Positions 4,394-50,459 of a DNA stretch of 64,000 bases are shown here, piece by piece (the first letter of the stretch is position 1; each line of letters starts with the position of its first letter). Origin of the DNA: Terebella lapidaria (taxonomy: Eukaryota; Annelida; Polychaeta; Terebellida; Terebellidae); the NCBI GenBank assembly GCA_949152475.1, contig OX424559.1, positions 34,579,119-34,643,118 of the forward strand, read 5' to 3'. The position numbers and the translations under genes were made by a program. The notes beneath the pieces were generated by a model that ran no database searches, was not told where the DNA came from, and worked only from the letters and a program-made list of their open reading frames with translations.

Positions 4394-4732
4394 CGCTCAC
4401 ATTCACGCGTACGCCGGACTTGGTGAGGACAAACAGAGGATCACTGGCTACTTTCACCTGGGAACTGGACCAGAATGTTAACTTCCAAACGTCTGTAGTG
4501 TCCTTTTATTACCAGCACGCAAACTACCCTGATCCATTCTACAACAATGTGCATCCTGTAATCTGGAGGTACGGGTACGAGAAGAGAACGAACGTCACAT
4601 ACGCCAACAACAGAGAACCTGGCTTCACATTGTACCAAGTACAACCTGCAGATACAACGGACAACTACCGCTGTAACATTCAAGGTGGCGAAGGTGTAGC
4701 GGATGACAACAACGCCAGGCTATTCATATATG
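4394..4732 (+). CDS. Gene A exon, Ig1 (V-like, missing B-strand Cys)
   Basis: 339 bp after an acceptor ending ATTTACAG and before donor TG/GTAAAC; phase 1-1. The product begins ALTFTRTPDL and ends ARLFIYG. The F-strand motif NYRC is present. The B-strand position where Ig domains carry Cys reads ATFTWEL, so the canonical disulfide cannot form. The gene B homologue has the same length and the same missing Cys. Confidence 0.85.
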
Positions 4733-7700
4733 GTAAACTTGCTGTTGGTATATAACACACTGAACATTGCTCGTTGATAATTGTCATTCCTTACCAAGTG
4801 AAATGGTGATATAGACGATCATGATCGTGCTTTTAGACGATCATGATAGATTAATTGTGTTTAATTCAACATTTCCCAGACACCCCCAGCACGCCTGTGA
4901 TTTCCCCAAACCCCGCCCATGTCGTGGAGGGAAGCCAAGTAACTCTGACATGTCACGCTGACACCACTTCTGTCCCCGCGGGAGATGCTCCTGACATGAT
5001 GTACACGTGGACGAGGGAGGGAGAACCTCCCCCCACAGACAGACACACAGTCACCGGAGACCAGCTGGTCATCAGTCCAGTAGACAGGTCTGACCATGGA
5101 GCTTTGTACGGCTGTGAGGCTTGGGAGACTGAGACCGGGCCCAGAAATAGTAACAACATACAACTCAATGTTCAGTGTGAGTGAATTCTTGGAATTATGA
5201 ATGTAAAAACGTTGTCAACAGACACCGGGAAAACAATAAAATATATGGACAATTACGAAGCATGTTTTACAATACATGACTGGTTTCATTTGAAACTAAT
5301 TATAACAGACGCACCAGCCAATGCAACCATCACTGGACCCAGCAGTCCGGTCGTGGAAGGATCACCACTGGACCTGACCTGTGACTTGTCCCCGGACCAG
5401 AGAGGTAACCCCGACACCTACACCTACACCTGGAGGAGGGACGGGACACTGGTGACGTCAACAGGTGGTCAGAACTCCCTCCACATTGATGACGTCATTG
5501 TCCCAGACCATGACGGGGCCTGGCGTTGTGAGGCTGATAACAGCATAGGAACCGGGCAGTCTGGGGAACTCACGGTTACTGTGCATGGTATGTGGGCTTC
5601 TCTTCTTGTCCATTGAAAGCTACATGCAATCTTCTACTTCTCGAATATTTATGCATGTGTCATGCTTCAAATTCGATTGTTAATTGTTATTTCAAGCACC
5701 TGCCAAGGTACATCAGCATCCTCCACCGAGTGAGGCTCTCCACTACAGTAATAATCTGTCAGTGTTGTGTGAGGTGAGAGCCAGACCGGCCGCCTCCATC
5801 AGCTGGAGGTACGAGGGCGGGGACACATTGCCCAGTGGTGTACAAGCCCAGTCTAGTACCAGGTCTGACGGGAAATACACCATCACGTCCAGCACTCTCC
5901 AGTGGAGGTCTGGAGCTACTGATGCTGAGAGGAGGGGGGCGTCTGGAGACTACACATGTCGTGGTAGCAATGGAGTCGGTGACGTGGCTGAGTCTAGCAA
6001 CATGAACCTGAGCGTTGAGTGTGTGTATGAATGTATTGCCATAATATAACCAGAATTTGTAGATGCTAAGAGATGAAGTAAAACATCATTTTTGGAATAG
6101 ACACAAAACCCAACTAAATAACGACATGGAAGCCTACATTTACTCCTAATGTTTGAGTGTAATACCCCCGTCACAACAGACTGGCGGCACCCTGCGGTGC
6201 TTGTACGATGTAAACTGCTGTGGCACCGCCATGGTCGCGGTGGTTCCTCAGTGATTCCGCATTTGAACGCCATAGCACCGTTGAAAACTGTCAACACCGC
6301 AGACCTTCACGGCGACACTGCGGAAACTTTGAACATGTTCAAACTACCGCAGAGCCACCGTGAGTGGGCCAATCCGCAGTAGGATCACTGCAGCACCGCC
6401 GTATACCGCTGTGGAACCGTACAAGGTCTTCATTAGCTCTTCATCCTCAGTAAAACCGCCGTGCAATCGCCAAAAAGTAGACAGTCGACCCTCCCGCGAT
6501 CACATGGCGGCTACGGCGGTGCTACCAAGGTGCTGCCACGGGAACACTGCGGGTATGGGGTGCCACTGCGGAGTCTGGTATGAATTTTACAACGCTTGAT
6601 GATCTGACTGTGATACTGCTGTGTTCCCGTGGCGATGGTGGCGGTGTTATTGAGGTGCATGTACGGCGATGGCGTGTCCAATAACGTTGCACTGAGGTAC
6701 TAACACGGTGCTGTTGCGGTCATATTTTGTAGTATACAAGCTTCGGTTTTCTGAATCAAATTCAGTGTCCGAAAAGTTTTCAAGCAGTTCAGACCGAGTA
6801 TTGAGAATGGCAGATAATTACGGAATAATGGCAGAATAATTGCCCGTCATGCAACAGTTGCTGCATTTGTTGCTGGTCACTACGGCATTTGCAGCAACAG
6901 CGGGCAGAAGATGAGCAAGCAACAGCAGCCCCGTCATCGTGTGAAGACTCCTCTTCCATTGGGGAAGGGCGCGGGAGGGAGTTGCTTGCTGGTTTTCCCC
7001 TTATAGCATGTTTCGGCATAAATACTATGTGATGCAATGTCTCCGGCAAAAATGGTAAAGAATTTGGCCAAAAACCATATCCATTTTACATAGCCGCCTC
7101 ACAGACTTATGGTTCCGCAATGCTGCCCCAGTGCCACCGTCATAGCACCTCAGTAGCATCGCCATCTCCGCAGTAGCACCTCAATGGCCCCTCAGCACTT
7201 CCCCCAACGCCGTTGTACCACCGCCAATGATCGCCGTAAAACCGCCAACAAAACGGCAGTGGTAACTCAATGGGGTCGCGTATCCTCATTGACACGCCGT
7301 GCATCCTTCCTGGTTCTTCACTACCAACGTGAAGAAAAACACACACTTGATGGGTAGGGAAAAATACGAAAACCCTACTGGGGGTGTCACTACGGTCATG
7401 GCGGTTCTAACAGAAAACGGTTGTTATAGCGCAGTGGTACCGCCATTCCAATGTGACGGGGGTATAAAGTATGTTAGCACCAATATGATAATAGTGTACA
7501 TAATGTCGTGTGTCACATTGAGAAAGATGCACAGACAAACAGTTGTACAGACTATTCGCACTTCATATAGTGATTATATATGCGTTTTTGAACAGATGAA
7601 CCATTGAGTATTTCACTGAACAACACTTCATCAATCAATGTTGTGGAAGGACATCAGGTGACCATCACGTGTCGGGCTGACTGCAATCCACTTTGCAGCT

Positions 7701-10700
7701 ACACGTGGACACGAGCCAATGATGACAGCTGGAGCATCTCAGACTCCACTCTCCACTTCCAGAACATCAGCAGGACTGATCACAACATCTATACCTGTGA
7801 GGCGACCAACAAACACGGCGATTTACCTACGTCTGTTGATATCATGGTCAATTGTAAGTAAACTGGGATTAACTTCATAGAGAAAAATATCATTAGGCCT
7901 ATATACATATATAAAATATTAAATTTTTTCTTAATATTTTTTTTTTGCGAAATGTAATAATTTAAAAGCTATCACCCTAAATACAAAAATATACGAATCT
8001 TGAGAATATGCCTGAAGAAAAATATGAAATTGATTCTGAAGACCACAATTGACCGTGTTCCTATGCTTTTCTATTTTCTCCTCATCAATGTATTCCGCCT
8101 AAATTACAGATCACAGTAGCCTATAATTGTTGAGTGTTAATCAGCTATGTTTGAATCACGAAATAATAAACGAATTATCTGTTAGCCAATTCACGCTCAG
8201 TCTGATATTGTGGTATGATCGCTGGTACTCATTTTCTGTACTCAGAAATCCCCAATGTGTTGTCATAGCATCATGCATTTCGTCATAATGTGTACATTTA
8301 ATGGACATCATGCTGAATGCTTCACACAGTGCACCTCGATAATGGTGTATTGGTAGGATACCGGACCTATGGTCCGATAACCTATTGGCATGGCGTCCGT
8401 CGTTCGTCGTGGCGTCCGTCGTCCGTCGTCCTTCCGTCGTCTGTCCGTCCGTCGTCCGTCCGTTCACATTTTTATATCTAAAGTATATGGTCAAATCTTT
8501 CTGAAATTTTGCACAAAAATACCTAAAAATATTTCCAGGAAAGGTTTTTTTAGTTTTCTGATTTCCGCATTTTTTTCAAAATGGCGGCCATTTTTGACGA
8601 AAAATGCCTGATTTTGGACTTTGGCGGCCATTCTCTCAAAATCTGTTCAATAACTTTTCTTCTTACTGATGCATAACATTCTTCATATGTACCCCTACGA
8701 TGTGTATAAGTTTCGTTGCCCTTGAATCGCTCGAAGTGGGCCATTTTGGGCCCAAACTCAGCCCAAACGGGACTTTCCCATGTTAAATTCTCCTATGCTT
8801 TATAATGGGACACATTAAGCCTAATATCTCACTTAAAGCTGTAAGTATGTTATAAATAGATAAACGACCATGTAAAAAAAATATTATGATAACGACCACG
8901 ATCTTCCCCGACGGATAAACTGAACGTAAAACCACAGAACCACGCGTTGTTTGTTTTGCTTCGAATGTGGGCGGGTCTATGCACTGGCGCGAGTCAGGCC
9001 GCCCACGACAGAGGCCAGAGGCAGTCGGCTGTAACGGCGAAGTGGTATAAAGCCATTCTTGCAGTGTGTGTCGATGATCATTTGATATGTTCCCCACAGC
9101 ACAGATGTCAGAGAACACACAAACTGCAAAGTATAATTGCATAATATCCATACGTGCACACAATTACTCATATAATTAGGGCTACATATTTCCCTCCTAG
9201 CCGTAATGAACGTATTATCCATTGGTGTGACGAATTTGTATGGTTCCCAGTAATTCATGTGCATAGATATATCCCCGTAATGTAGCCACATCAACAGTAA
9301 AGTTATCATACATATTTGTACACAACATACAAACAGGCTTTGTGAAATGGTAAATTTTGTACTCATATGTTGTTGAGCAGTGCTCAGTCATTGTATGCTA
9401 TATTACTAACCTAGAGTACATGCCAATAGGTGCATACCTGTAACATAGCATGTACATGTACAATTGGACAGACTATCAAGGGTGACGCTATCAATGTTAT
9501 ATGATTACAAAATATTCCGTCAGAGATGTCACCCATATTGTCACACCCTACATTCAACCAATATGCTATAAACACTGAAATATAGATATACACAATGAAA
9601 TGCATTACATACGGACATTGAGGACGATGTGTATGCCTCCTTGGTCTATTGAGTATGCCACATTGTAGGCCAGTCGCCCCCTCCTTTTATACGGCCGAAA
9701 ATCCCCCTGGTCGGCCTAGGCCAAAGGCACCTACTTACGTCACCAGTCAGCACGAAAGGTTCAGGGGATGTCTCAAAAGGTCGAAGGGATTGTACAGTAT
9801 CTCTATATATAGCATACTTACAGCTTTAATATTGAGATTAGATACTAGGAATCAATTGTGGACATATAGGAAATGATATATGCTGAATATTCTTGTGACC
9901 TTGAATTTGACCTCTGACCTCGGTTTCAAGGTCAGAGCGGCCATTTTAGTTGAAAAATGGCCAATTTTGGACTTTGACGGTCGTTTCCTCAAAATCTGTT
10001 CAGTAACTTTTTTTTCTTATTGATGCATAACAGTCCTCATATGTACCCCTGTGACATGTATAAATTTCGTTGCCCTTGAATCGCTCACAGTGGGCCATTT
10101 TGGGCCCAAACACGGTCCGAATGGGACTTTCCCATGTTAAATTCTTCTATGCTTTATAATGGGACAGATTAAGCCTAATATCTCACTTAACATTGAAATT
10201 AGAGACTAGGAATCAATTGTGGACTTATAGGAATAATATATGCCAAATATTCTGGTGATAGACGTGGAATCAATACCCAGTATCAAGTATTCCGAGCAAA
10301 CAAAACAGGGTCCGTTATCCAATCTCATAGTCCGGGGACAGAAAGTCATATCAGGCATACGAAGTGAGAGAAAACAAAAATGACAGGGAAACTCATGAAC
10401 CCCCGTAAATGGCCATCAGGAGGTGAAATCAGGTGTTCCGGAAAGAGTGAGCATTTCCTGCTCCACTAGTGGCACCCGTCATGAATTCCCCAAAATTAAC
10501 ATGAAAATAGATCTAGTTGCATGGCAGACATGGATTTGCTGTATTTATCAACCAGATCATGATGACGTCCATAGAATTTCTTAAACGCAGCGATAAGTCT
10601 TGGTAAAACATATCCTTGTCGTAGCAGTTTAGAGACTAGCTGGGCACTTCGATAGACAAAGTCCTCATATTTGCAACTAGCTCTGGAATAGCGTATAAGT

Positions 10701-13700: not shown

Positions 13701-16700
13701 ATTGTTCCACAGTCCCGTCTGGTATCACGGGGTTCACATCATCCTCTGCCAATCCCATTCATGGAGATACCCTCAATCTGACCTGCGACGTCACCAGTCG
13801 ACCGGAATCTATGATCACAATAAGCAACTCCACCACAGAACTAGCAGAGGACACGGGATACACTGCTGTGTACACGTTCCACTCAATCACTGTTTTACAT
13901 TCCGGAGATTATTGGTGTCAAGCCAGTAACACAATAGGGAGCGTTACTGAACAGTCAGTTCTGGATGTTGAAGGTAATTAAACAACGTGTTTGACTGTGC
14001 TTTAGTTGTGTGATACTTTCTCGTCATACAGTGTTACATCTCTCAGAAGCCACATTGATTGCAAATTCAAAATATCATTGCAGGAGGCTACTATTTGTGT
14101 AGTGACCAAAACCAGAACATTTCCCGTGGAGTCGCCTTGGAAGCAGCTTTCCGAGAACAAATTTGTCAATTTGCCAACCCTTTTCATAACGTATCTGCAA
14201 GTAATTGGACGTTTGATTCCCTAAATGAAACACGCATCCATATGACGCTACCAGATGGTATCAACATCTACCTGGAAGCTGGACAGCACAAGTATCAGAA
14301 GAATGTTGTGTTTGATCTGCCGTTTGTTGAGCCTACTCATTACGGGAAATACACCATGACATCCGTGAATATATTTGGAGGGGTGACATTTATAATGCAA
14401 CTAACACCGGAAGGTAATGAAAAATCGAGAGAGAAAAATACACCACCTTCAGTTCAAAGAATATCCCTGAACAATGGAACAGATATCTCCGTGCTTGTTG
14501 TGTCAATCAGTGAATATTCATAGCATCTGAAACTGAAGTTAATGTAGATCTATGTCGTATATCTATATGTATTATATACATCTATTTATTACATACATAT
14601 GAGGATGCCACACCACATCCCAATCAGCTTTCTGCCACACCTTATATATTGTTCTTCTAGGTCCACCAGAAGCCCCCTACGATTTACTCTGTACAGACAC
14701 GACAGCTGTCAGCATGTCTCTCCAGTGGAGGGCTGGGTACTCCGGCGGCTCAGGCCAGAGATTCCTGCTGACGTTCACAAACCTGGACACTGGTGACACA
14801 AACTCCACTGTCGTTGACGGTACAGACGTGTCACGTACTGACGTCCTACGTCATACACTGTCAGAGAGTCACGGCATCGAACCTGAACAAACCTACCAGA
14901 TCCAGGTGGTGGCTGAGAATGACAATGGACAGACAGCTGGACCCAAGACAACCAACAACACCCTTGGTAATATACATGTAGGTCTGACACAGATTAGTCA
15001 GTATGTACGGAATCATCACCACCAGTGCCAGAATAATGATGAAATGGTGACTTGAAAACAAAATGAACCAATCTGGATTAGAAAGCTCAACGCCAAAAAT
15101 AATTTCCTATATCCAGCTCAACACGAACGTCTACAATGGTTCTGTAGACTTTCTGGTGTTGGGATTTGACTGTGCTTATTATCCCTTCCAGACCAAATCA
15201 CCTCATATAATGCGTTGCTTGTTTCAGCCCGTCCATACTTTGAAGATGAACCTGCCATCGACTACGCTGGTAATGTATCTCACATAACATGGCTACTGGT
15301 CAACCCTGGTTCACTGACACACATTGTTACTGAAAGCTGCGATCTAGGCGATGAAGCAGATTGTAGAACAACCAACATCACACACCCAGACGTCCAGCCA
15401 TACTCAGTAGCTCTGCCACAGGGAGAGGCATTCAGCTACGTCTTCGTGTTTTATGATGGGGAAGTCATGGTCAACTCTGATGATTATCAAGATACAATTG
15501 GAGGTGATAGGCGATTGATTGAGTTAACGCTGAACTAAACTTAAGTAAAAGGTTCTATTAAATACTTCCTTAAAGAATACATGAAGTCCATTTATTGATG
15601 GTGATCTAAAGAGGTTTGGATTTTACACAATGTGCGGCAGTGATTGGTGCATCAATCGAGAATAGGATATTATACCAATCATGTTTGTTGATCACTGTAA
15701 ACAGACGGCATATCGTATCTCTCTCTAAACAGACGGCATATCGCACTATAATTTCACTCATCCCGGGTCCACACATATTGTTCTGTTTTGTGTTATAGGG
15801 GAAATGCGAGTCGATATCATTGTCGGATGTGTTGTTGGCATTTTTGCTGCATCTGTGCTGGTTGTTGTCCTGATACTTTTGTGGCGAAGAGGATTGTTTT
15901 CAGAGGTAAACGACAAACATTTCCAAAATAATAGCCAATTTCAGATTAGAAGCTAGAATATTCCCTTTTAGTATTCAACGCAAAATCTTTTTGGCTAGGC
16001 TCCTTTTCAAAATATGATAATAGCAGAATAACAGATCGACATGGTGATTTTGATGTACTGTATACATCTACGTAGTAAATAGCGTTATAATATATATGGA
16101 CTAAATACGACAAATTATGCCAAAACTCTCACAACCTGCAAATATGCATCATACCTTCGATGGTTCCCCAAAACCCGGAAGAGGATTACACTGCATATAA
16201 CTGTATATACTCTAAGCAACATAACTTTTTGTGTAGCCTCGGTCGTGGCGATATTATCACAAATCTACAGTTTCTTTTGTGCGATAACCCTGTAAGGACA
16301 TTCCATGTGCAATGCTTTTCAATGGTTGACATATGCCATTACTTTCTAGGGACACCCTACAACCCAGGCCAAAAAACATATATTAATTAAGTGATTTTGT
16401 GTGTCTAAAATTAGTAATTTCATACGTTCGAAATTCAATTTACTTTTCCTCAATGGTGGGTCGAACTTATTTGTTTTATGTAAAATAATCACTATCATGA
16501 TGAAAAAAAAGTAAATTCATACATGCAAAACTGATTTTTACCGGTCAGAAAATATTGTTACAGGTCAATTTTGTTTGAAAGTATAAAAACGTTTTGTACT
16601 TGTGGAAAACGTTCTCAACACGATCAAAATTGTTAACCTTATTGATTTATTATAATTTATGCATGGACTGACGGATGCCCCCACCCAAAGAAAAACAAAA

Positions 16701-17497
16701 CAAAACAATAATGATGACATATATCAGCTACCGAAAATGTATCTATTTTACAGAAGGAAACATCAACATCGGATGAATTCCACTGTTATGTAAATGCACC
16801 AGGAAATATAATGGTAAAAGCGAAAAAGATATACTTTGTTCAAAGCCATAACGGTGTTTGTGATATTCTCTGTTATAATAATAATCAGCGTCTAATGGGG
16901 AATCAGTGTATCTTTTATAATACCACATTCAAGATATCTATTAGTCCAAATGTATTCTCTTTTTTGGAAAACAACCCTATTAGCATTTCATACCTCATCA
17001 TGATTTGTTTTTGAGGATGCTGATAGAAGTGAACCTGCAGTCAAGTATGAGAATGTTTGCTTGGCTGACACAACTGATCAAAATCAATATGATGAGCTAA
17101 TCAGTTCCGAGGTCTCTAAGGTAAGAATCCATGGAATTCTCTCAATATTAGTGACACAATAAAAAAACAGATTTCATATTGAACTAGGACATGTCAGAAC
17201 GCATACCCATACAAAGCACTCAAGCGACTGAAGTTGTTAATATTATATATATTGTTACATTTTGCCATGCACATATAGGATCAAACTGTTTATGAGACAA
17301 TGGGTTCGGACATCAAAAATCACGACAAGCTGGATGTCACTGAAATACAAGGGGTAAATATATTCTGCATGCTATGTCGACAAAGTGGAGAAATATTCAA
17401 TTTGTTTTGTGAAAGCTTGTCTAATGTGTCAGAAAATTATGATCAATGTATTTTACAGAATTCCACTGTCTACGAGTCTGTCCGCCCTGAGAACTGA
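4394..17497 (+). CDS. Gene A: Ig/FN3 type I membrane receptor with tyrosine-motif tail (14 exons seen)
   Basis: Spliced gene built from consensus acceptors and donors. Exon order: V-like Ig1, Ig2, Ig3, Ig4, Ig5, Ig6, an Ig-like domain without the usual F-strand Cys, FN3a, a membrane-proximal two-Cys domain, a transmembrane exon, and four cytoplasmic exons. All extracellular exons are phase 1-1; tail exons are phase 0. The 14 exons sum to 3056 bp; a 46-bp signal exon like that of paralogous gene B would give 1034 codons. That signal exon was not found upstream, so the 5' end is incomplete. The tail contains VKYENV (ITIM-like), TVYESV (ITSM-like), TVYETM, QYDEL and CYVNAP, which points to SH2-dependent signalling at the plasma membrane. 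The architecture resembles sialic-acid-receptor or CD22-like IgSF proteins of invertebrates, but orthology cannot be claimed. Ligand unknown. Confidence 0.85.
4880..5176 (+). CDS. Gene A exon, Ig2
   Basis: 297 bp, acceptor TTTCCCAG, donor CAGT/GTGAGT, phase 1-1. Canonical Ig features: VTLTCHAD (B strand), YTWTREG (Trp core), LYGCEAW (F strand). Its starting residues TPSTPVISPNPA match the gene B exon at 49282-49578, which is exactly the same length. Confidence 0.92.
5309..5587 (+). CDS. Gene A exon, Ig3
   Basis: 279 bp, acceptor TTATAACAG, donor CATG/GTATGT, phase 1-1. LDLTCDLSP, YTWRRDG and AWRCEADN supply the Cys, Trp and Cys of an Ig fold. The gene B counterpart (48871-49149) has equal length and nearly identical protein. 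Confidence 0.93.
5697..6020 (+). CDS. Gene A exon, Ig4
   Basis: 324 bp, acceptor TTATTTCAAG, donor GAGT/GTGTGT, phase 1-1. LSVLCEVRA, ISWRYEGG and GDYTCRGSN mark the Ig core. It is closely similar to gene B exon 48454-48774 (321 bp), for example in the shared stretch SGATDAERRG. Confidence 0.92.
6163..7464. mobile_element. TIR DNA transposon in gene A intron, TAA target duplication
   Basis: Ends are TACCCCCGTCACA and its complement, with similarity continuing inward (TGGCGG.ACC). A TAA flanks both ends (6160-6162, 7465-7467). A 3-bp TAA duplication is typical of PIF/Harbinger elements; assignment is tentative. The interior is unusually full of CACCGC / GCGGTG words and has no credible transposase, so it is probably non-autonomous. 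Confidence 0.8.
7596..7853 (+). CDS. Gene A exon, Ig5 with extra Cys pair
   Basis: 258 bp, acceptor TTTGAACAG, donor AATT/GTAAGT, phase 1-1. VTITCRAD, YTWTRAN and IYTCEATN give the Ig core. An additional CNPLC pair in the B-C loop could make a small extra disulfide. No counterpart exists in gene B, where Ig4 and the Ig-like domain are separated by only about 155 bp. Confidence 0.9.
10496..12097 (-). CDS. Reverse transcriptase ORF, YIDD type (Penelope-like suggested), 533 codons
   Basis: Uninterrupted ORF with RT motifs in order: TFDFSTLYTTIPH (first catalytic Asp), GIPMGTNCAPLLADLFL, and FRYIDDVLSL (catalytic YIDD). LYWIPKLHKNP near the N-terminal third is typical of Penelope-like and related RTs of invertebrate genomes. 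No GIY-YIG nuclease, RNase H or integrase is visible. The first ~12 residues are translated from satellite sequence, so the true start is uncertain (RT homology begins later). Clade assignment is from motif style only. Confidence 0.8.
   Translation of the reverse strand: MCSDLETEVRGQPQGFKIESRKPSISYEGFREKAEIDSLSEWVKQIRSLVNKRINVLSKSVSTKYSSVFNDPVVTNSLLKLQERFVIVPADKASNNVVFVCKAYYIQCLFDELGIANNTNPNSTYQAITVPKQDILSNHLSVLHSFGITTSCKDSNLPNLYWIPKLHKNPHKQRYISGSASCSTKALSKILTTILSKIKQGLQKYSETIYSRSGINQMWILKNSKSLLEYLHAHTLSKVTSIKTFDFSTLYTTIPHSELKSQLKKLINNSFFSKKGQRRYHYIVVKYNTAYFVKGDSDAPYKYTEIDVVNMVNFLIDNIFVEFGGRIFQQTIGIPMGTNCAPLLADLFLYSYESDFIQHLQRGGSKKLTCNFNFTFRYIDDVLSLNNPKFGDYLDVIYPKELEIKDTTESANFSNYLDLRLEIDNDSNLSTRLYDKRDDFNFSIVNFLFLSSNIPMSPAYGVFVSQLIRYSRASCKYEDFVYRSAQLVSKLLRQGYVLPRLIAAFKKFYGRHHDLVDKYSKSMSAMQLDLFSC
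12061..13660. repeat. About 117-bp satellite carrying nuclear-receptor half-sites (array 1)
   Basis: About 13 imperfect monomers. Each typically holds TGACCTTGAATTTGACC, TTGACCTTTGACCTC and TTTCAAGGTCA, followed by AAAATGGCTAATATCTC and a spacer with ACAGCTTAGGAATCAATTGT. On the opposite strand this gives AGGTCAAAGGTCA (a DR1 arrangement) plus TCAAGGTCA. Isolated monomers also lie at 9820-9940 and 10190-10270. Confidence 0.9.
13713..13973 (+). CDS. Gene A exon, Ig6
   Basis: 261 bp, acceptor TTGTTCCACAG, donor GAAG/GTAATT, phase 1-1. Translation in the required phase is open throughout and starts PSGITGFTSSSANP. LNLTCDVTS and GDYWCQASN supply both Cys; the core Trp is replaced (MITISNS). The acceptor lies about 15 bp from the right end of the large mobile unit in the preceding intron. 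Absent from gene B. Confidence 0.85.
14084..14413 (+). CDS. Gene A exon, divergent Ig-like domain 7
   Basis: 330 bp, acceptor CATTGCAG, donor GAAG/GTAATG, phase 1-1. The product starts GGYYLCSDQNQNISRG and ends MQLTPEG. Where an Ig domain would have Y-x-C it reads HYGKYTMTS. Two Cys lie instead in the N-terminal half (LCSD, QICQ). The gene B exon at 47969-48298 has exactly the same length, ANPF, NWTF, LPD and HYG.YTMTS signatures, so this is a conserved domain rather than random ORF. Confidence 0.85.
14661..14966 (+). CDS. Gene A exon, FN3a
   Basis: 306 bp, acceptor GTTCTTCTAG, donor CTTG/GTAATA, phase 1-1. Fibronectin type III pattern: PPEAPYDLLC, LQWRAGYSGG (Trp), TYQIQVVAEN (Tyr/Leu core), GPKTTNNTLG. 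Equal in length to the gene B exon at 28595-28900. Confidence 0.92.
15228..15503 (+). CDS. Gene A exon, membrane-proximal FN3-like domain
   Basis: 276 bp, acceptor CTTGTTTCAG, donor GGAG/GTGATA, phase 1-1. Contains ITWLLVNPGS, a conserved two-Cys segment (SCDLGDEADC) and FVFYDGE. Probably a degenerate FN3 fold before the membrane; family assignment is inferred from position. The homologue in gene B (28220-28498) keeps both Cys and the YDGDDLVN segment. Confidence 0.85.
15799..15905 (+). CDS. Gene A exon, transmembrane segment
   Basis: 107 bp, acceptor GTGTTATAG, donor CAGAG/GTAAAC, phase 1 to 0. Encodes DIIVGCVVGIFAAS followed by VLVVVLILLW, then a basic WRRG stop-transfer. Together with the Ig/FN3 exons before it this fixes type I topology. 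Gene B's transmembrane exon has the same 107 bp length. Confidence 0.93.
16754..16813 (+). CDS. Gene A exon, cytoplasmic tail 1
   Basis: 60 bp, acceptor TATTTTACAG, donor ATG/GTAAAA, phase 0-0. The product KETSTSDEFHCYVNAPGNIM contains CYVNAP, a YxN context known to be preferred by GRB2-type SH2 domains. Confidence 0.75.
17016..17120 (+). CDS. Gene A exon, cytoplasmic tail 2 (ITIM-like)
   Basis: 105 bp, acceptor TTTTTGAG, donor TAAG/GTAAGA, phase 0-0. Contains VKYENV, which fits the ITIM pattern (V-x-Y-x-x-V) and also YxN, and QYDELI. Corresponds to the 108-bp gene B exon at 22709-22816. Confidence 0.8.
17279..17353 (+). CDS. Gene A exon, cytoplasmic tail 3
   Basis: 75 bp, acceptor CACATATAG, donor AGGG/GTAAAT, phase 0-0. 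Starts DQTVYETMGSD; YETM fits the YxxM pattern of PI3-kinase p85 SH2 sites. No equivalent was found in gene B. Confidence 0.78.
17459..17497 (+). CDS. Gene A terminal coding exon (ITSM-like)
   Basis: 39 bp, acceptor TATTTTACAG, ending in a TGA stop. The product NSTVYESVRPEN contains TVYESV, an exact fit to the ITSM pattern T-x-Y-x-x-V. Short, but phase, splice site and motif all agree with the upstream exons. Confidence 0.8.
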   Translation, partial: NSTVYESVRPEN

Positions 17498-17922: not shown

Positions 17923-17925
17923 GGG

Positions 17926-19423: not shown

Positions 19424-20281
19424 CTTATTTGTTATCAAATGTATATAAATCACGTTATACCTTCCATTGTCGGTCAATAGCAGCAAAACAAAATAAATGT
19501 CATCAATTTCATAATCTTCACTCATTATGTTTCTAATATATAATCCATAACTACAAACTCCTCGCACTGCTACTGTATTACAAACAACATTATCACATTT
19601 CCTTAATCAAAGTTGCATAATCATTTTTCGTAAGTTCACTTATGAATCAGGCAAACTCAAAATGCGACTGTGATATTTTTGTTTCCATGATTGTGGTCTC
19701 ATTTTGTGCAAATTTTCCATTTCATGGAATTTGTTTGATCCCATTTTGGATTGAAATTTATCATTGTAAAAGATGGCCAAAATTTTGATTTTTCTTAGAA
19801 TTCTGAGATTTGGTGAACAGTTGCTGCATGATACCAAATTAAGACACACTAAATTTTAAGTTGATATGATGATATAAAACAAAACTGCGGCCAAAAAGTG
19901 TATTTCACTGATACGTGAACTTGACTTCATCTTGATGTAGCCACATAATTTCGAATAATGCACACAATACGTCATTTTTTTCATTTACACGTCATTGGTC
20001 TAGCACACTTTTGCTAAATTCATACACAACTTTCCAATATAATATGATATACATTCCTTGATCATGGTACATCATTTACAATCTGGATGGCAATACAATA
20101 GTTAGCATGTGAGTATCACTACTTACATACAATCTGGATAATATCAATTTTGGTCCATTTTATGGTATATTTGTTTGCAACCTCTTCTCGATTTGATAGC
20201 ATTACTGCCTTTTTAAAAAAAAATATGTAATTTTTTTTTTAAAATATGTTCATTTCAATGAAATCAGTAAATCGTTATTAC

Positions 20282-22224: not shown

Positions 22225-22586
22225 TATATCTTGAGATATAACTTGATCTATTCATATATGAAACTACTGATGAGAACAATTTTTCTTGCTGAATACATGC
22301 AACTATACAACCATAAGTCAGCACAACCCTAGAAATAAAAGGAATGAAAATTGGAACATACTCATACACGAAGATGTCTAATACAATGTCTGTTGTTGAT
22401 TTTTCAGATCACAATAAAGTGGTACATGTGATCTTCACATTAACGTATATAAAGACTCACAATACACTGCAAAATTGTTCCATGTTTCATCAATAAAGTT
22501 CAGTTGTGACATTTGTCTCTAATTTTCAGATGTCCACGTTGTGATAAACTTTATTCTCAGGCTGCATACCATCGTAAACGGCTGGG
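22225..22586. repeat. 362-bp direct repeat, copy 2 (with gene B last exon)
   Basis: Second copy of the repeat at 20909-21270. Here the terminal exon lies in proper order with the upstream tail exons of gene B. Confidence 0.92.
22526..22561 (-). CDS. Gene B terminal coding exon
   Basis: 36 bp, acceptor GTATGCAG, ending in a TGA stop. Product PENKVYHNVDI: the motif YHNV is again YxN plus a +3 hydrophobic residue, like the terminal YESV of gene A. The exon lies inside a 362-bp sequence that is duplicated at 20909-21270. Confidence 0.72.
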   Translation of the reverse strand, partial: PENKVYHNVDI

Positions 22587-46500: not shown

Positions 46501-49500
46501 TCCCAGGCCTACGGACACCGTTCAGAAACTAGTTCATCCCTACGGTGTTAACTGGCGGGGCCTGGCGAGCCGCGGTCTGCCTCGGGGACGGAACCCCGTA
46601 CAGTCCGACATGCTGGCCAGAGCCTCTGGCACACGTCCCGGGAAGGGAGAGAACTGGCGATCCACAGGGCGTACGCCCCCGAGTCAGCAACTTGTCTCTC
46701 CCAGCCCGGGCCTCCCCATGGAAATCGTCCCCAGCGCTCTAGGAGCCCTCTACTCAGACCCAGGGAACACAAAGCTCATGGCGAGCCTCGTGTGCGTCCT
46801 ATACTCTGATTTTTCTAACTCGTTTACACCGTTTTTTGCCTTTGTTTCAGTCAAATTACCTCAGGCGAACTATTTAACTGAATATTACATGTCTATGATG
46901 CAAACGGCAATAGATTTTCACAAACCTGGCTTCCGAAACGCTACATGTTTCTTTCAAAACACAAAAGTTCAATTTAAGCGAGGATTTTCACTGTTGTAGG
47001 GCGCTGCCATATTGCCTTACTCATTACGTAATTCAAGTGGACAAGTTCAAGTTAGGTACTATGGGGGCGTGCGCTGCAGTATTATATACCAATTACAGGC
47101 TGGGACGGTCCCATTCCTAACCCGCGCTCCCTGCGTGAATCAACCGAATAGACTGTTCCGTCACGCGCTCAAAATAAACAATGTATGTTGACATGCAGAC
47201 GAAAAGTTTTCAGGACGAATTTATCATTGCAGTAGATTACTAACTTTATCAGTTTCATGAGTAGAAGACTGAAAGTTTGCAGAAAATTGCTGTTTGGTCC
47301 CAAGGTGAGCTATGCCAAGTTATAACACAATACGATTTAGCATCGCAAAAATATCAGCAAAAAACGGTGTAAATCAGAGTATAGTCTCGATCTCTCAGAC
47401 AATCTCCTCGATCGAGTCGCTTCCAGTGTATATATAATACACCACAAGCTGTAGGGCGCACGCGAGGTCTAATCGATCCATTGTTATAGTTTACTGGAGC
47501 GTAAATTACAATGCGTCGCCGTGGCAACGCACGCTCGAACGGAGCGTGTCAAAACAAGGCCAAGTACGAAAAGGCCACATAAATGGCATTTATGTTTACA
47601 ATCACCTGCCGCGTGCTTAAGGCAAAATCGCCAAACATAGCTCATGTTCGTTACTTTACAATAACTGTTCAGTCTTTGTCATTGTATTTACAACGGTTTT
47701 TGGTCGCATTACATTTACTTCCATGGGAATATTGAGAAAGGTCACCCATAGTTATTTACTATGTATTTACATGTACAGTGTATTTTGTAAAGATGGATTT
47801 TCGCGCGGTGGCGCTTCGCGTGTACAGCAATATTATGTCATGTGGAAAAGCTCCAAAAAATGTCACGCCCCTATGATTTTGTGGGTGAGGGATAATGTAA
47901 GATATTGTCCTTGTATTATGCTTAAAGAAGTTTTAGCATGCAAACAATAGCCAACTACGTGTACTCACCTTCAGTTGATAATTGCAGCGTGAACGTGAGG
48001 TCTCCTCCGATATCATTCGCACTTGTCATCGTGTAAATTCCATAATGGTTGTTACTGGTTGCAGGTATTTCAAATATGACAATTTCCTGATATTCGATCG
48101 ACGTGTTTTCTAAATGGATCGACACATCATCGGGAAGAGTTAGTTCTGATGCCGCGGATCCAAATGCAAATGTCCAGTTTGCCCTGGATATATCTGGGAA
48201 AGGGTTTGCCTCTTGACAAATGCGTTCTTCAAAATTTCTGTTCGTAGCAATACCTCTATGAATTTCGCCAGCTTGTCCCGAACAGAAACGGAAATCAACT
48301 GGCGAGAGATATTCAGAATGGTTAAATTGGCGTTAATAGATTGACACATACAAATGGATATTAATAAATTCATGGAACTTTTCGGTCAAGTCATCGCTCT
48401 TGAAGGTAAATGCTAATCTATATGATAATTATTGAGTACATTTCATGTCTTACATAGAATATCTATTTCAACGTTGAATGCAATAGCTCCACCAACACCA
48501 TTTGCTCCAGTACACGTGTAGTCTCCAGACGACCCCCTCCTCTCAGCATCAGTAGCTCCAGACCGCCACTGGAGATTGCTGGAGGTGATGGTGTATTTCC
48601 CGTCAGGCTTGGTACTAGACTGGGGTTGTACAGCACTGGGCAGTGTGTCCCCGCCCTCGTACCTCCAGCTGATGGAGGCAGCCGGTCTGGCTCTCACCTC
48701 ACACAATACTGACAGAGTCACACTGTAGTGGAGAGCCACGCTAGGTGGAGGAGATTGGTGGAGGTTGGCAGGTGCTAGAAGAAACAAACCACAGTTTTAT
48801 TTTTTTGTGTGTATGATGTTTGTCAGTATGTTGACTGTATTTTGATTTCCAAAAATCAAGTCCCACATACCGTGCACAGTGACTGTGAGTGCCCCAGACT
48901 GTCCGGTTCCTATGCTGTTATCAACCTCACAACGCCAGGCACCGTCATGGTCTGGGACAGTGACGTCATCAATGTGGAGGGAGTTCTGACCACCTGTTGA
49001 CGTCACCAGTGTCCCGTCCCTCCTCCAGGTGTAGGTGTAGGTGTCGGGGTTACCTCTCTGGTCCGGGGACAAGTCACAGGTCAGGTCCAGTGGTGATCCT
49101 TCAACAAGCGGACTGATGGGTCCAGTGATGGTCGGAGCTCCTGGTGTGTCTGTTATAATTAATTTCAACTGAAAGAACATATATATTGTAATACATTTCC
49201 TAATTAATCTAATTGCCTTGATGGTTTCCCTTACACCCAATGAGCATGCATGCATATTTACCACAGTCATAAATCACTCACACTGGACATTAAGTTGTAT
49301 GCTGTTACTATTACTAGGCCCGGTCTCAGTCTCCCAAGCCTCACAGCCGTACAAAGCTCCATGGTCAGTCCTGTCTACTGGACTGATGACCAGCTGGTCT
49401 CCGGAGACTGTGTGTCTGTCTGTGGGGGGAGGTTGTCCGTCCCTCGTCCACGTGTACATCATGTCAGGAGCATCTCCCGTGGGGACAGAAGTGGTGTCGG

Positions 49501-50459
49501 CGTGACACGTCAGAGTTACTGGGCTTCCCTCCACAACATTGGCGGGGTTTGGGGATATCACAGGCGTGCTGGGGGTGTCTATTAGGTAGAATAATAACAC
49601 AGAATCACTCGGCTTTGTTGGCTCAAAATACAAATATTTAAAAGTAACATATCCAATACGCTCCCCATACTGCGTTATAACACTACTGTACTCCAGTCCC
49701 ATTCGCATATAGATGTGAGGGAAAGTACACAAACGTCCCATATGAAATGTGCTATATAAAAGATGCCTGAAATGTAAGTCAGATCGCATGTGGCAAAAAT
49801 GTTTTGCAATATCTATAATTTTATCTACATACAGTGTGAGACGCCAGTAACATTAAAACGTGATCCTAATACTAACACATACCGTATATGAACAGCCTGG
49901 CGTCATTGTTGTCAGCTGTACCTACTGGTGATACCAAGTTACATCGGTAGTTGGCCTCTGTATCTGCAGGTTGTACTTGGTACAGTTCCAAGTCCAGTTG
50001 TCTGTTGTTAGAGTATGTCACGTTTGTTCTCTGCTCATACCCGTATCTCCAGGTTACGGAAAGTTCTTTGGTGTAGAATGCATCAGGATAGCTTATGTGT
50101 TGGTAATACAGGTTAACTGTGGTCAGTTGCCAGTTAATACTCTGGTCCAGTTCCCAGGTGAATGTAGCCAGTGACCCTCTGTTTGTCCTCACCAAGCCCG
50201 GCGTACGCGTGAATGTCAGCGCTGTAAGTGAGAATAATAATAACAACAATATGAATATAATCGCTACATGCGGGAGTATGTGCGAATTATATATCTGAAG
50301 GTGCAGTGGTTATAACAAACTTCGGGTTTGGTGAACGCTATAATTCGGGAATGCTATAATGTACTGATTACCTAAGGGCTTAGAACTTTGATTAATAATG
50401 AACATGTACATACCTGTACTAGCTTGCACGAACAATATGAATATGCAGGAAAGTTCCAT
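22526..50459 (-). CDS. Gene B: paralogous Ig/FN3 receptor, tail-to-tail with gene A (12 exons)
   Basis: Minus-strand paralogue of gene A: signal exon, Ig1-Ig4, Ig-like 7, FN3a, membrane-proximal domain, transmembrane helix and three tail exons. Exon lengths nearly equal those of gene A (339, 297, 279, 321, 330, 306, 279, 107, 63, 108, 36 bp); with the 46-bp signal exon they total 2511 bp, exactly 837 codons, and every junction phase agrees. Ig5, Ig6 and one tail exon of gene A are missing. The intron between 47968 and 28901 is about 19 kb and holds a LINE, a fold-back element and other repeats. The intron between 27843 and 22971 holds the DIRS-like unit. Tail motifs are VQYDNI, KQYEDL and KVYHNV. 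Treating the two clusters as one gene is inference from collinearity and phase; a split pair of half-genes is the alternative. Confidence 0.78.
22709..22816 (-). CDS. Gene B exon 11, cytoplasmic tail 2 (ITIM-like)
   Basis: 108 bp, acceptor TTACTTCAG, donor CAGC/GTAAGA, phase 0-0. Contains VQYDNIEV (fits both ITIM and YxN) and KQYEDLNV. Matches gene A's 105-bp exon in size and motif spacing. Confidence 0.82.
22908..22970 (-). CDS. Gene B exon 10, cytoplasmic tail 1
   Basis: 63 bp, acceptor GATTTCAG, donor GACG/GTAAGA, phase 0-0. Product starts KHVRTSDRDTQNW; no tyrosine. Supported by splice sites, phase and position (gene A counterpart 60 bp), not by sequence similarity, so confidence is moderate. 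Confidence 0.6.
23934..27336. mobile_element. Unit with 700-800 bp terminal inverted repeats
   Basis: Left repeat 23934-24734 and right repeat about 26625-27336 are diverged inverted copies. Shared landmarks from the outside in are AACCATGTTTTAGGGTC, GGTGCC...GGCACCC, a TTTTTCAGGGCCGA-type block, ACATGACATACATTATATG and CCTCATTCGCCAA. The interior is a decayed DIRS-like fragment. No target duplication was found. It lies in the intron between the transmembrane and first tail exon of gene B. Confidence 0.8.
25130..26650 (-). pseudogene. Decayed DIRS-like RNase H / tyrosine recombinase fragment
   Basis: Across frames the minus strand reads ELKAVWLGIRHFQ and YIKNQEG (RNase H style), LDLFATFQN, NAITLDWSNF, LLPAVLQKI (the region joining RNase H to recombinase in DIRS-type elements), then KWRVFSAWCS (recombinase N-terminus). 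Several frameshifts and stops interrupt it. No intact catalytic R..R..Y set was found. The reverse transcriptase part is missing. Confidence 0.65.
27844..27950 (-). CDS. Gene B exon 9, transmembrane segment
   Basis: 107 bp, acceptor CGTTTCAG, donor CAAG/GTAAGT, phase 1 to 0. Encodes IIWIVVGVVCGVVI followed by LLIAVVLFVL and a basic HHKR stop-transfer. Same length and phase as gene A's transmembrane exon. Confidence 0.9.
28220..28498 (-). CDS. Gene B exon 8, membrane-proximal FN3-like domain
   Basis: 279 bp, acceptor CATCGCAG, donor GCAG/GTGTGT, phase 1-1. Conserves IVWYLANLGS, the two-Cys segment ACDSRDSSLC and MLYDGDDLVN relative to gene A 15228-15503. Confidence 0.87.
28595..28900 (-). CDS. 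Gene B exon 7, FN3a
   Basis: 306 bp, acceptor CTGAATAG, donor CTCG/GTTCGT, phase 1-1. DPPYDLVCTD, LEWRAGYHGG and SYRIQVDAIN reproduce the FN3 core of gene A 14661-14966. It lies 19 kb from exon 6. Confidence 0.85.
30588..30770. mobile_element. Dispersed element, copy 2 (internally deleted, inverted)
   Basis: Inverted relative to 2993-3745: GTGAGACAGAGTGCCATCGCG and GTTGATATAACGCACAC match the two ends of copy 1, the middle being shorter. Confidence 0.65.
32134..32208. repeat. AT-rich palindrome, about 36-bp arms
   Basis: GCTGAAAGG...ATCTTGTTATATTTGCA is followed after a short centre by its complement ending CCTTTCAGC. Two outer mismatches only. Cruciform-prone. Confidence 0.75.
32551..33110. 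mobile_element. Fold-back element with 24-25 bp subterminal repeats
   Basis: About 38-bp terminal inverted repeats (CTACGGAGCC...GAAGAAATATTTTT). Direct repeat GATAG on both sides (32546-32550, 33111-33115). Interior: two arms of tandem CGCGTTCCCTCGCAATATTA-type units (32596-32813 and, inverted, 32850-33062) around a short unique spacer. ORFs inside simply translate the repeats. Confidence 0.85.
34721..35692 (+). pseudogene. LINE endonuclease domain, broken
   Basis: Three consecutive frames: 34721-34963 (FFCLVESHPVGTH, GGVGILAKN), 34982-35227 (YGFMICVCYLPPADS, CGDFNARSG) and 35255-35692 (LDHSIL). These are motifs of LINE endonucleases (Glu of VESH, the NAR Asn/Asp, the D-H pair). At least two stops or frameshifts break it. 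Confidence 0.8.
35738..36899. mobile_element. Palindromic DNA element inside the LINE, ACACA target duplication
   Basis: Ends CACCCTGC / GCAGGGTG. Arms of about 500 bp are inverted copies (for example CCACAAATATGTAGTGTCCAAA at 36010 and its complement at 36620). ACACA occurs on both sides (35733-35737, 36900-36904). Excising it joins the LINE in frame (KQAH to MDEV). No ORF. Confidence 0.87.
36904..37971 (+). pseudogene. LINE linker and reverse transcriptase N-terminal half
   Basis: 36904-37443 gives a linker region ending in a stop. After a frameshift, 37582-37967 carries RT motifs: PIPKAGKDNLLSTSYRCISL and VVFIDFTRAFDTVHHEF (first catalytic Asp). Cut at DSIK by the next insertion. Confidence 0.85.
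37961..39696. repeat. 868-bp tandem duplication inside copy 2
   Basis: 37961-38828 is repeated at 38829-39696 at a constant offset of 868 bp with few differences. Each half contains a satellite monomer, two copies of a ~150-bp segment whose plus strand reads DDANKKRKILHFAIETN, and a PEGY-type block shared with 44795-44880. Confidence 0.88.
37967..41455 (+). mobile_element. Retroelement unit, copy 2, lacking the RT, inside the LINE
   Basis: Same ends as 8355-13699 in opposite orientation: ATTAGCCC at the left, GGACGACGGACG and TATCGGACCATAGGTACGGT at the right. TAAAAA flanks both sides (37961-37966, 41456-41461). Removing the insert joins the LINE as DSIK to NMCG in frame. The RT is absent; the satellite and the 3' segment (40980-41455) remain. 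Confidence 0.85.
39640..40985. repeat. About 117-bp satellite carrying nuclear-receptor half-sites (array 2)
   Basis: About 11 monomers, opposite orientation to array 1: TGACCTTGAAAATGAGGTCA, GAGGTCAAAGGTCAAATTC, TTCAAGGTCACGAGAATATT. Copies are more uniform than in array 1. Single monomers lie at 38030-38240 and 38900-39110. Confidence 0.92.
41465..42480 (+). pseudogene. LINE reverse transcriptase C-terminal half
   Basis: TDWFDVKTGVRQGDTLSPT and LLYADDIVALSDS (catalytic YADD), then frameshifts; a later segment (41877-42284) reads YLKIHKATVTPVMDYASAIW, typical of the thumb/C-terminal region of LINE polymerases. Confidence 0.85.
42796..42860. repeat. G-rich / TG microsatellite
   Basis: Runs of G (10 and 9) and TGTGTGTG tracts on one strand; potential G-quadruplex. 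Confidence 0.85.
43136..44047. repeat. Large inverted repeat, left copy
   Basis: Diverged reverse complement of 51796-52967. Matching landmarks: TTGCTTGAGCATTGTTTCG, GACAGGGTGAACAATGCTACG, GAGAGTGGGAGTTGTAGGG, AGTGGGAACCCTGTGA and GGCGACACATGTC. No coding potential seen. Confidence 0.8.
44048..47960. other. Gene B intron stretch, mostly unassigned
   Basis: A block at 44795-44880 repeats the 38520-38605 sequence (CAAGCC..AAGGCTACTGA). Otherwise single-copy-looking AT-rich DNA except the GC-rich island at 46330-46800. No exon recognized. Confidence 0.5.
46330..46800. other. GC-rich, CpG-rich island inside intron
   Basis: Sharp rise in GC with many CpG and CCGG sites. Short ORFs on both strands (Pro/Arg/Ser-rich) have no recognizable domain. 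Either the 5' part of an unrecognized retroelement or a regulatory CpG island. Confidence 0.45.
47969..48298 (-). CDS. Gene B exon 6, divergent Ig-like domain
   Basis: 330 bp, acceptor CTCGCCAG, donor GAAG/GTGAGT, phase 1-1. Matches gene A 14084-14413 in length and in the signatures ICQEANPF, ANWTF, LTLPDD, HYGIYTMTS and LQLSTEG. It again lacks the F-strand Cys. Confidence 0.85.
48454..48774 (-). CDS. Gene B exon 5, Ig4
   Basis: 321 bp, acceptor TTTCTTCTAG, donor CTAT/GTAAGA, phase 1-1. LSVLCEVRA, ISWRYEGGD and GDYTCTGAN mark the Ig core. The next exon is only about 155 bp downstream, which leaves no room for the Ig5 and Ig6 exons seen in gene A. Confidence 0.92.
48871..49149 (-). CDS. Gene B exon 4, Ig3
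   Basis: 279 bp, acceptor TTATAACAG, donor CACG/GTATGT, phase 1-1. LDLTCDLSP, YTWRRDG and AWRCEVDN; nearly identical to gene A Ig3, so the duplication is recent or the exon is kept alike by gene conversion. Confidence 0.93.
49282..49578 (-). CDS. Gene B exon 3, Ig2
   Basis: 297 bp, acceptor ACCTAATAG, donor CAGT/GTGAGT, phase 1-1. VTLTCHADT, YTWTRDG and LYGCEAWE are the Ig core. Very close to gene A Ig2. Confidence 0.92.
49883..50221 (-). CDS. Gene B exon 2, Ig1 (V-like, missing B-strand Cys)
   Basis: 339 bp, acceptor CACTTACAG, donor TACG/GTATGT, phase 1-1. Paralogue of gene A 4394-4732: LTFTRTPGL, ATFTWELDQ and NYRCNL are conserved, again with no Cys in the B strand and one in the F strand. 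Confidence 0.88.
50414..50459 (-). CDS. Gene B exon 1, signal peptide
   Basis: 46 bp from ATG at 50459 to donor ACAG/GTATGT, ending phase 1. Encodes MELSCIFILFVQAST, a compact hydrophobic signal peptide; joined to the next exon it continues ALTFTRTP. An in-frame ATG 24 bp upstream (50483) would add eight polar residues; the shorter form looks more like a signal sequence. Confidence 0.8.

What the first reader, a model, noticed from the sequence alone, without database searches (positions are those of the whole stretch)
4394..50459. Tail-to-tail pair of Ig/FN3 receptors with SH2-docking tails
Two paralogues converge: gene A (+) and gene B (-). Both couple a V-like Ig domain, further Ig domains, FN3 domains and one transmembrane helix to short tails with ITIM/ITSM-like motifs (VKYENV, TVYESV in A; VQYDNI in B). 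Paired IgSF receptors with such tails are best known from vertebrate leukocytes. Exon phases (1-1 outside, 0-0 inside) and lengths are almost identical between the two. This may be a polymorphic or expanding receptor family used in invertebrate immunity or allorecognition; that role is inference.
Basis: partly seen in the sequence, partly recalled or inferred. Interest (0 to 1): 0.82.

Follow-up and report, generated by a model that had tools for sequence, protein, structure and literature searches.

The report
Clustered worm receptors with shuffled heads
Two neighbouring genes in a marine worm belong to a crowded chromosomal cluster of some sixty related receptor-like genes in which outer ends vary and have been swapped between genes while signalling tails stay alike where read, the pattern expected of a recognition system such as one used in immunity or in telling self from non-self.

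Summary
The two converging genes are real and are two of about sixty. The window lies on chromosome 5 of an annelid, almost certainly Terebella lapidaria. Both spliced reading frames are open to one final stop. Three family exons gave 56 V-like, 64 divergent-Ig ("D") and 65 juxtamembrane hits in that genome. All but five lie at C5:33.08-36.16 Mb; 58 D exons fall within 1.54 Mb. Of 62 D exons on C5, 47 have V upstream and juxtamembrane downstream. dN/dS is below 1 in all four domain pools tested. A and B tails each carry four YxxΦ tyrosines, more than chance; strict ITIM matches are within chance, and ITAM-like spacing also fits. In 11 of 12 loci a transmembrane exon was found, none with a charged core residue. 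A neighbouring gene (C5:34.50 Mb) is a clean mosaic: A-type to mid-Ig3, then B-type. V and D trees conflict elsewhere too. Best reading: a duplicating, recombining recognition-receptor family, probably immune. It resembles Hydractinia Alr and vertebrate paired receptors in organisation; membership is not shown. Expression, polymorphism and ligands were not testable.

The parts
4394..4732 (+). Gene A exon: V-like Ig domain, no B-strand Cys
   Evidence: 69% aa identical to B; 56 genome hits; 27-row profile hits V-set chains in PDB; AG/GT ends
4880..5176 (+). Gene A exon Ig1
   Evidence: Pfam Ig_2 1.5e-12
5309..5587 (+). Gene A exon Ig2
   Evidence: Pfam Ig_2 2.9e-12
5697..6020 (+). Gene A exon Ig3; the point between 5895 and 5906 corresponds to the mosaic junction of gene C
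   Evidence: Pfam Ig_3 5.2e-7; junction
7596..7853 (+). Gene A exon Ig4 (no counterpart seen in B)
   Evidence: Pfam Ig_3 2.4e-12
13713..13973 (+). Gene A exon Ig5 (no counterpart seen in B)
   Evidence: Pfam Ig_3 2e-8
14084..14413 (+). Gene A exon D, divergent Ig-like, no YxC Cys
   Evidence: 45% identical to B; 64 genome hits; 30-row profile hits Ig chains in PDB, best 1.3e-4
14661..14966 (+). Gene A exon FN3
   Evidence: Pfam fn3 1.1e-7
15192..15503 (+). Gene A juxtamembrane exon, no known family
   Evidence: no Pfam match; 65 genome hits
15799..15905 (+). Gene A transmembrane exon
   Evidence: 23-residue uncharged run; homologous TM exons in paralogues
16754..16813 (+). Gene A tail exon T1 (predicted, weakest)
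   Evidence: open 0-0 exon with AG/GT; identical in paralogue E, whose whole 3' end is a near copy
17016..17120 (+). Gene A tail exon T2: VKYENV, QYDELI
   Evidence: homologous T2 in E, N, O, 34984 and, diverged, B
17279..17353 (+). Gene A tail exon T3: TVYETM
   Evidence: identical in E; weak match in O (E 0.73)
17459..17497 (+). Gene A last exon T4: TVYESVRPEN-stop
   Evidence: similar last exons TPTVYESVSNE (O), TPVVYESITGN (K), TPNVYQSVNRSGR (33080)
50414..50483 (-). Gene B signal-peptide exon (MVNSKYIEMELSCIFILFVQAST)
   Evidence: ATG, hydrophobic core, phase-1 donor CAG|GTATGT; keeps the frame open into V
49883..50221 (-). Gene B exon V-like
49282..49578 (-). Gene B exon Ig1
   Evidence: Pfam Ig_2 2.4e-13
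48871..49149 (-). Gene B exon Ig2
   Evidence: Pfam Ig_2 4e-12
48454..48774 (-). Gene B exon Ig3
   Evidence: Pfam ig 1.5e-5, above its cut-off
47969..48298 (-). Gene B exon D
28595..28900 (-). Gene B exon FN3
   Evidence: Pfam fn3 2.1e-6
28220..28498 (-). Gene B juxtamembrane exon
   Evidence: 42% to A's exon in the genome search; no Pfam match
27844..27950 (-). Gene B transmembrane exon
   Evidence: identical protein sequence in gene C
22908..22970 (-). Gene B tail exon T1
   Evidence: identical protein sequence in gene C
22709..22816 (-). Gene B tail exon T2: VQYDNI, QYEDL
22526..22588 (-). Gene B last exon: AVYDGM, KVYHNVDI-stop

Best explanation
A and B are two of about 60 genes of one family packed into a single block of annelid chromosome 5. 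The gene plan, read fully in A and B, is a single-pass membrane protein: a V-like tip, several Ig domains (their number differs), a divergent Ig-like D domain, one FN3, a family-specific juxtamembrane domain, a TM helix, and a short tail with several YxxΦ tyrosines. Shown: the cluster, the shared exon order, dN/dS below 1 in four domain pools, near-identical duplicates, mosaic genes, and tail exons alike in members with divergent tips. Inferred: the tip binds a ligand (microbial, self or allogeneic); engagement leads to phosphorylation of tail tyrosines and docking of SH2 proteins (phosphatases for ITIM/ITSM-like sites, Syk-type kinases or PI3K for paired YxxL/I and YxxM sites). Duplication and recombination supply many tips on fewer tail types. 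The likeliest setting is coelomocyte immunity or self/non-self recognition.
For: Cluster: 62 of 64 D hits, 55 of 56 V hits and 63 of 65 juxtamembrane hits lie on C5; 47 of 62 D exons there have V upstream and juxtamembrane downstream. Open spliced frames for A and B. Mosaic gene C: before the switch 427 of 443 informative sites are A-type (12 B-type, 4 neither); from 5906 to 5999, 23 of 23 are B-type; 97.3% to A's region upstream, 98-100% to B per 100 columns after it. V and D trees conflict. A against E: V 66% aa, Ig5-to-juxtamembrane 88% nt, TM-to-tail 98.8% nt including introns. T2 tail exon shared with N and O, whose tips are 38% and 36% identical to A's. dN/dS pooled: V 0.42, Ig1 0.80, Ig2 0.42, D 0.27.
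Against: No transcript, ligand or expression data. No domain-average positive selection, which a fast-evolving ligand-binding tip might show. Strict ITIM counts within chance. A/E tail identity reflects recent conversion, not constraint, because introns match equally. T2 was not found in K in A's form nor in 33080, 33836, p34474 or C8. Neural or adhesion roles give the same domain list.
Confidence: 0.55

Rival explanations
1. The family is a clustered neural or tissue adhesion-recognition family (like Dscam, Dpr/DIP or clustered protocadherins in role): variable tips mediate homophilic or heterophilic contact between cells, and tail tyrosines link to SH2 adaptors.
For: Ig plus FN3 plus TM is the common architecture of adhesion receptors (recalled). 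D-profile matches in PDB include LRIG1, Neuronal growth regulator 1, IgLON5 and Contactin-5, though the best is the macrophage colony-stimulating factor receptor (1.3e-4). V-profile matches include sodium channel beta-2, though antibody V domains score too, the best at 2.4e-7. No domain-average positive selection.
Against: Mosaic genes, near-identical duplicates and stop-bearing hits (4 of 56 V, 0 of 64 D, 6 of 65 juxtamembrane) suggest turnover faster than I expect of a wiring family (recalled expectation). No array of alternative exons was noticed, but none was searched for.
Confidence: 0.25
2. The family controls allorecognition or gamete compatibility as such: polymorphic tips report genetic identity, as Hydractinia Alr does.
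For: Single-locus cluster of IgSF genes with low mutual identity, as described for the Hydractinia allorecognition complex (PMC11067881, section read); mosaic genes show recombination.
Against: Polymorphism and any fusion or rejection phenotype are untested. This polychaete is, to my knowledge, not colonial. For annelids I saw only reference titles on earthworm graft rejection and leech responses to transplantation.
Confidence: 0.12
3. Part of the pattern (near-identical copies far apart on C5, the mosaic gene C, contig C61) is assembly artefact: retained haplotigs or mis-joins.
For: Pairs at 95-99% including introns; C61 is a 75-kb unplaced contig whose held stretch is 97.9% identical to C5:35.065 Mb; the genome note reports 13 haplotypic duplications corrected.
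Against: In the 16 genes compared, only 2 of 120 pairs have V over 95% identical. V/D conflict is also seen at moderate identity (F with H, N with O and Q).
Confidence: 0.08

Closest known systems
Hydractinia symbiolongicarpus Alr family (allorecognition complex)
   Same: Tens of linked single-pass IgSF genes with low mutual identity, pseudogene-like models, V-set and I-set domains.
   Different: Different phylum. Gene A has Ig1-Ig5 and D after the V exon, plus FN3 and an unassigned juxtamembrane domain; Alr2 is described with three Ig-like domains. No sequence comparison was possible.
Vertebrate paired receptors with ITIM/ITSM tails (LILR, SIGLEC, SIRP, SLAM types; recalled)
   Same: Clustered IgSF genes, tails with ITIM/ITSM-type tyrosines.
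   Different: No charged TM residue among the TM exons found in 11 of 12 loci; FN3 and juxtamembrane domains; tails also fit ITAM-like spacing.
Oyster IgIT/CgIgIT2 receptors (Crassostrea gigas)
   Same: Lophotrochozoan Ig receptor with a TM and immunoreceptor tyrosine motif. The review text calls the motif ITAM; reference titles it lists call the receptor inhibitory.
   Different: Described as five Ig domains; no FN3 and no such cluster mentioned in the passages seen.
Dscam and other Ig/FN3 adhesion receptors
   Same: Ig domains followed by FN3, TM, tyrosine-bearing tail (recalled).
   Different: Diversity here lies in many genes and recombination between them; alternative exon arrays were not searched for.

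Membership tests
Immunoglobulin superfamily receptors | Ig domains by curated profile | tested here: met
   Ig1, Ig2, Ig3 in A and B, Ig4 and Ig5 in A each over a Pfam cut-off
Immunoglobulin superfamily receptors | V-set N-terminal domain | tested here: inconclusive
   A itself has no Pfam match; 2 of 27 members match V-set (best 6.5e-4); profile hits antibody V and sodium channel beta-2; 0 of 27 have the B-strand Cys
Vertebrate-type paired receptors | ITIM/ITSM in the tail | tested here: inconclusive
   VKYENV, TVYESV, VQYDNI fit the recalled consensus, but one ITIM per tail is within chance and ITAM-like spacing also fits
Vertebrate-type paired receptors | Activating partners with charged TM residue and short tail | tested here: not met
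   TM exons in 11 of 12 loci examined, none with a charged core residue; C's TM equals B's and E's nearly equals A's; the scan favours hydrophobic TMs; about 50 loci were not read
Vertebrate-type paired receptors | Genomic clustering | tested here: met
Hydractinia Alr family | Cluster of tens of linked IgSF TM genes | tested here: met
   58 D exons in 1.54 Mb; Alr description
Hydractinia Alr family | Same domain architecture | tested here: not met
   FN3 and juxtamembrane exons and more Ig exons against three Ig-like domains reported for Alr2
Hydractinia Alr family | Sequence homology to Alr1/Alr2 | not testable with these tools
   no cnidarian proteome held
Hydractinia Alr family | Polymorphism that decides fusion or rejection | not testable with these tools
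   one assembly, no phenotype
Dscam-type receptors | Arrays of mutually exclusive exons | not tested
   none noticed in the window, no systematic scan

The most novel reading that the evidence does not exclude
This is a lophotrochozoan histocompatibility-like complex: one chromosomal block in which duplication and intragenic recombination reassort V-like tips onto a few conserved SH2-docking tails, evolved independently of cnidarian Alr, tunicate FuHC and vertebrate systems, and underlying annelid self/non-self recognition.
Probability: 0.15. Interest if true: 0.87.

Novelty: new variant of a known kind. Interest (0 to 1): 0.66.

Why it matters
Annelids are reported to reject grafts (reference titles), but I know of no molecular recognition locus for them. 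Seven library searches listed no paper whose title or abstract start describes an annelid IgSF cluster; one search listed 10 of 14, and the library lacks most subscription papers. A mapped block with members, tail types and a documented mosaic makes the question testable: sequence the V exon across individuals and measure expression in coelomocytes. The block also shows intragenic recombination as a source of receptor variety in an animal without rearranging immunity.

Tried and rejected
AlphaFold2 on two-row alignments of V and D gave useless models (mean pLDDT 38.9 and 36.9), so no fold search was run. Positive selection was not found on domain average: the pairs are not independent, I chose the groups by similarity, and they hold 24 of 30 V loci and 21 of 30 D loci; FN3, juxtamembrane and tail exons were not tested. 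I first took A/E tail identity as constraint and rejected that, because introns match equally at 98.8%. I considered whether gene C is simply an inverted allele of the window (inversion between A's and B's Ig3). No near-identical B-type 5' end with A-type 3' end turned up to its right: the gene there has V 81% like B's, D 77% and juxtamembrane 87% like A's. Scans for A's signal exon found none. A haemocyanin search meant to test for a mollusc did not complete and was dropped once the mitogenome showed annelid gene order. Rfam found nothing in the window at gathering threshold.
Full report
What the window is. The window is G000:C5:34579119-34643118 of a 761.6-Mb genome in 438 contigs. Contig C438 (15,973 bp) is a mitogenome whose 22 tRNAs and long protein frames read on one strand, in the order I recall as the conserved annelid one, with two trnM. 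Contig sizes match Terebella lapidaria wtTerLapi1.1 (PMC11364976, part 1 of 3 of the text read): chromosome 5 is 45.2 Mb (C5 is 45,195,318), chromosome 16 is 28.56 Mb (C17 is 28,561,639), mitogenome 15.97 kb. Span (765.2 against 761.6 Mb), scaffold number (576 against 438) and chromosome 8 (43.11 against 43.07 Mb) differ a little, so I call it almost certain, not proven.

The two genes. The exon reading was checked: every internal boundary is AG/GT, and the joined exons stay open to one final stop (A 1,029 codons without its signal exon, B 853). A: V, Ig1-Ig5, D, FN3, juxtamembrane, TM, four tail exons. B: signal exon, V, Ig1-Ig3, D, FN3, juxtamembrane, TM, three tail exons. Lengths agree exactly for six of eight shared exons before the tail; Ig3 differs by 3 nt and the juxtamembrane exon by 33. 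Pfam supports five Ig exons in A, three in B and one FN3 in each. The second supposed FN3 has no Pfam match in A or B; among 20 members, ten unrelated families match one member each at E 0.046 or worse, and the best PDB match is E 0.24. I call it the juxtamembrane domain. The V-like exon has no Pfam match in A, but a 27-row profile hits antibody V domains and sodium channel beta-2. None of 27 rows has the B-strand cysteine and 8 of 27 lack the F-strand one; in D the F-strand cysteine is replaced in 30 of 30 rows. The D profile hits Ig domains of the macrophage colony-stimulating factor receptor (1.3e-4), LRIG1, titin and others.

The family. Own-genome searches at E up to 0.01: V-like exon 56 hits (55 on C5, 1 on C61), D exon 64 (62 on C5, 1 on C8, 1 on C61), juxtamembrane exon 65 (63 on C5, 1 on C8, 1 on C61). 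The tool warns that counts of large families are lower bounds. On C5 they span 33.08-36.16 Mb, with 58 D exons between 33.527 and 35.065 Mb. Of 62 D exons, 53 have a V upstream and 56 a juxtamembrane exon downstream within 30 kb on the same strand with no other D between; 47 have both; 7 of 63 juxtamembrane exons have no D partner. D exons lie 20 on + and 42 on -. Hits with a stop inside: 4 of 56 V, 0 of 64 D, 6 of 65 juxtamembrane. The single C8 gene shows D, juxtamembrane and TM exons but no V hit.

Coding constraint. NG86 dN/dS within similarity groups, pooled: V 0.42 (30 pairs), Ig1 0.80 (13), Ig2 0.42 (22), D 0.27 (31) (24 of 30 V loci and 21 of 30 D loci used). Four of 13 Ig1 pairs exceed 1 on few changes. 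This supports real coding exons with looser constraint in Ig1, not domain-wide positive selection.

Recombination. Gene C (V at C5:34500458, +) matches A's region 2908-5981 at 97.3% and then switches to B. Before the switch 427 of 443 informative sites are A-type, 12 B-type and 4 neither; from 5906 to 5999, 23 of 23 are B-type; the last 24 sites before it, 5694-5895, are all A-type. Downstream, nine full 100-column windows match B at 98-100%; the last, at the alignment's edge, has 75% of 63 columns. Further on, identity to B is 98.4% over 1.1 kb and 97.9% and 98.7% over stretches holding the TM and T1 exons. The junction sits inside the Ig3 exon. Gene E (V at 34675408, +) has a V 66% aa identical to A's but 81% to B's, a D 91% identical to A's, 88% nt identity to A from Ig5 to the juxtamembrane exon, and 98.8% from before the TM through the tail, introns included. 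In 16 genes with both exons in hand, V and D trees conflict; holding A with E on V, or A with C on D, is rejected (AU p 3.8e-82 and 6.4e-7), with the cautions that I chose these groups after seeing identities and that the tool warned of long branches meeting. N, O and Q (V 61-74% alike; D 36% between N and the other two) and F with H are further conflicts. Pairs of copies about 90-760 kb apart at 95-99% identity, introns included, point to recent segmental duplication, though retained haplotigs cannot be excluded.

Tails and TM. I examined 12 loci (A, B, C, E, K, N, O, 33080, 33836, 34984, p34474, C8) and found TM exons in 11, not in p34474; none has a charged core residue. C's TM equals B's and E's nearly equals A's, so these are fewer than 11 independent cases. 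The T2 exon (YENI/V ... QYDEL) is found in A, E, N and 34984, with YENF and YDVL in O, and diverged in B; K has other tyrosine-bearing stretches; none was found in 33080, 33836, p34474 or C8, and C's fetched stretch ends before it. Last exons of the TVYESV kind are seen in A, E, O, K and 33080. In A four of five and in B four of four tail tyrosines are YxxΦ (shuffle P 0.0028 and 0.0005), while strict ITIMs number one each (P 0.19, 0.15). The tyrosine pair in T2 of A, B, N and 34984 also fits a loose ITAM spacing. Whether signals are inhibitory or activating is therefore open. Motif definitions are recalled.

How it most likely works. Shown: a block of receptor-type genes with variable tips, alike tails where read, duplication and intragenic recombination. 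Inferred: ligand binding at the V-like tip, tyrosine phosphorylation, SH2 docking, and a role in immune or self/non-self recognition. I put about 0.55 on the whole chain and about 0.9 on the family being membrane receptors with signalling tails.

Against what is known. The Hydractinia allorecognition complex is closest in organisation: at least 41 linked Alr loci of low mutual identity, with pseudogene-like models (PMC11067881, passages and one section seen; review PMC11999971, passages seen; PMC10815962, passages seen). Architecture differs and homology is untested. Oyster IgIT receptors are the closest lophotrochozoan receptors in tail logic (PMC11999971, passages and reference titles seen). 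Strict paired-receptor status fails on the charged-TM test in the loci read. Library searches listed no paper on an annelid IgSF cluster by title or abstract start; the library is partial.

Noticed in passing
window 10496-12133 (-): Open 545-aa reverse-transcriptase ORF (RVT_1), resembling Penelope-like elements (recalled), inside the gene A intron between Ig4 and Ig5.
   Followed up: partly
window 12053-13665 and 39617-41011: 134-bp-period satellite arrays in introns of both genes, in opposite orientation and roughly 82-83% identical in the longest matches.
   Followed up: no
window 34045-42018 (+): Open frames resembling LINE-type fragments; a reverse-transcriptase match only at 41456-41890, none for 35228-35692 or 36901-37443; in the gene B intron.
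   Followed up: partly
window 59620-60837 (-): P-element-type transposase ORF (TNP-like RNase H, GTP-binding insertion and P-element HTH domains); the neighbouring frame 58328-58888 matched nothing.
   Followed up: partly
window 17923-22586: Blocks repeated at 99% identity in direct and inverted order between the two genes, a young repeat.
   Followed up: no
window 57757-58023: Imperfect 144-bp tandem repeat holding a GACGAGTCCGAAA string that reminds me of hammerhead ribozymes; no Rfam match at gathering threshold.
   Followed up: no
G000:C17:11.66-11.76 Mb and C4:41.14-41.60 Mb: Dense FN3 array on one strand (perhaps one giant gene) and a separate run of FN3 hits often in pairs (150 of 622 candidates scored).
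   Followed up: no
G000:C417 (61 kb): COX1-like reading frame with in-frame TGA in a contig other than the mitogenome: perhaps organelle DNA of another organism.
   Followed up: no
G000:C61 (75 kb), L031: Unplaced contig with a family member 97.9% identical over 3.3 kb to C5:35.065 Mb: second haplotype or recent copy.
   Followed up: partly
L044, L045 (C5:34563891, 34474675): Two V exons, 98.7% identical with flanks, sharing the same in-frame TAA, so probably duplicated after the stop arose.
   Followed up: partly
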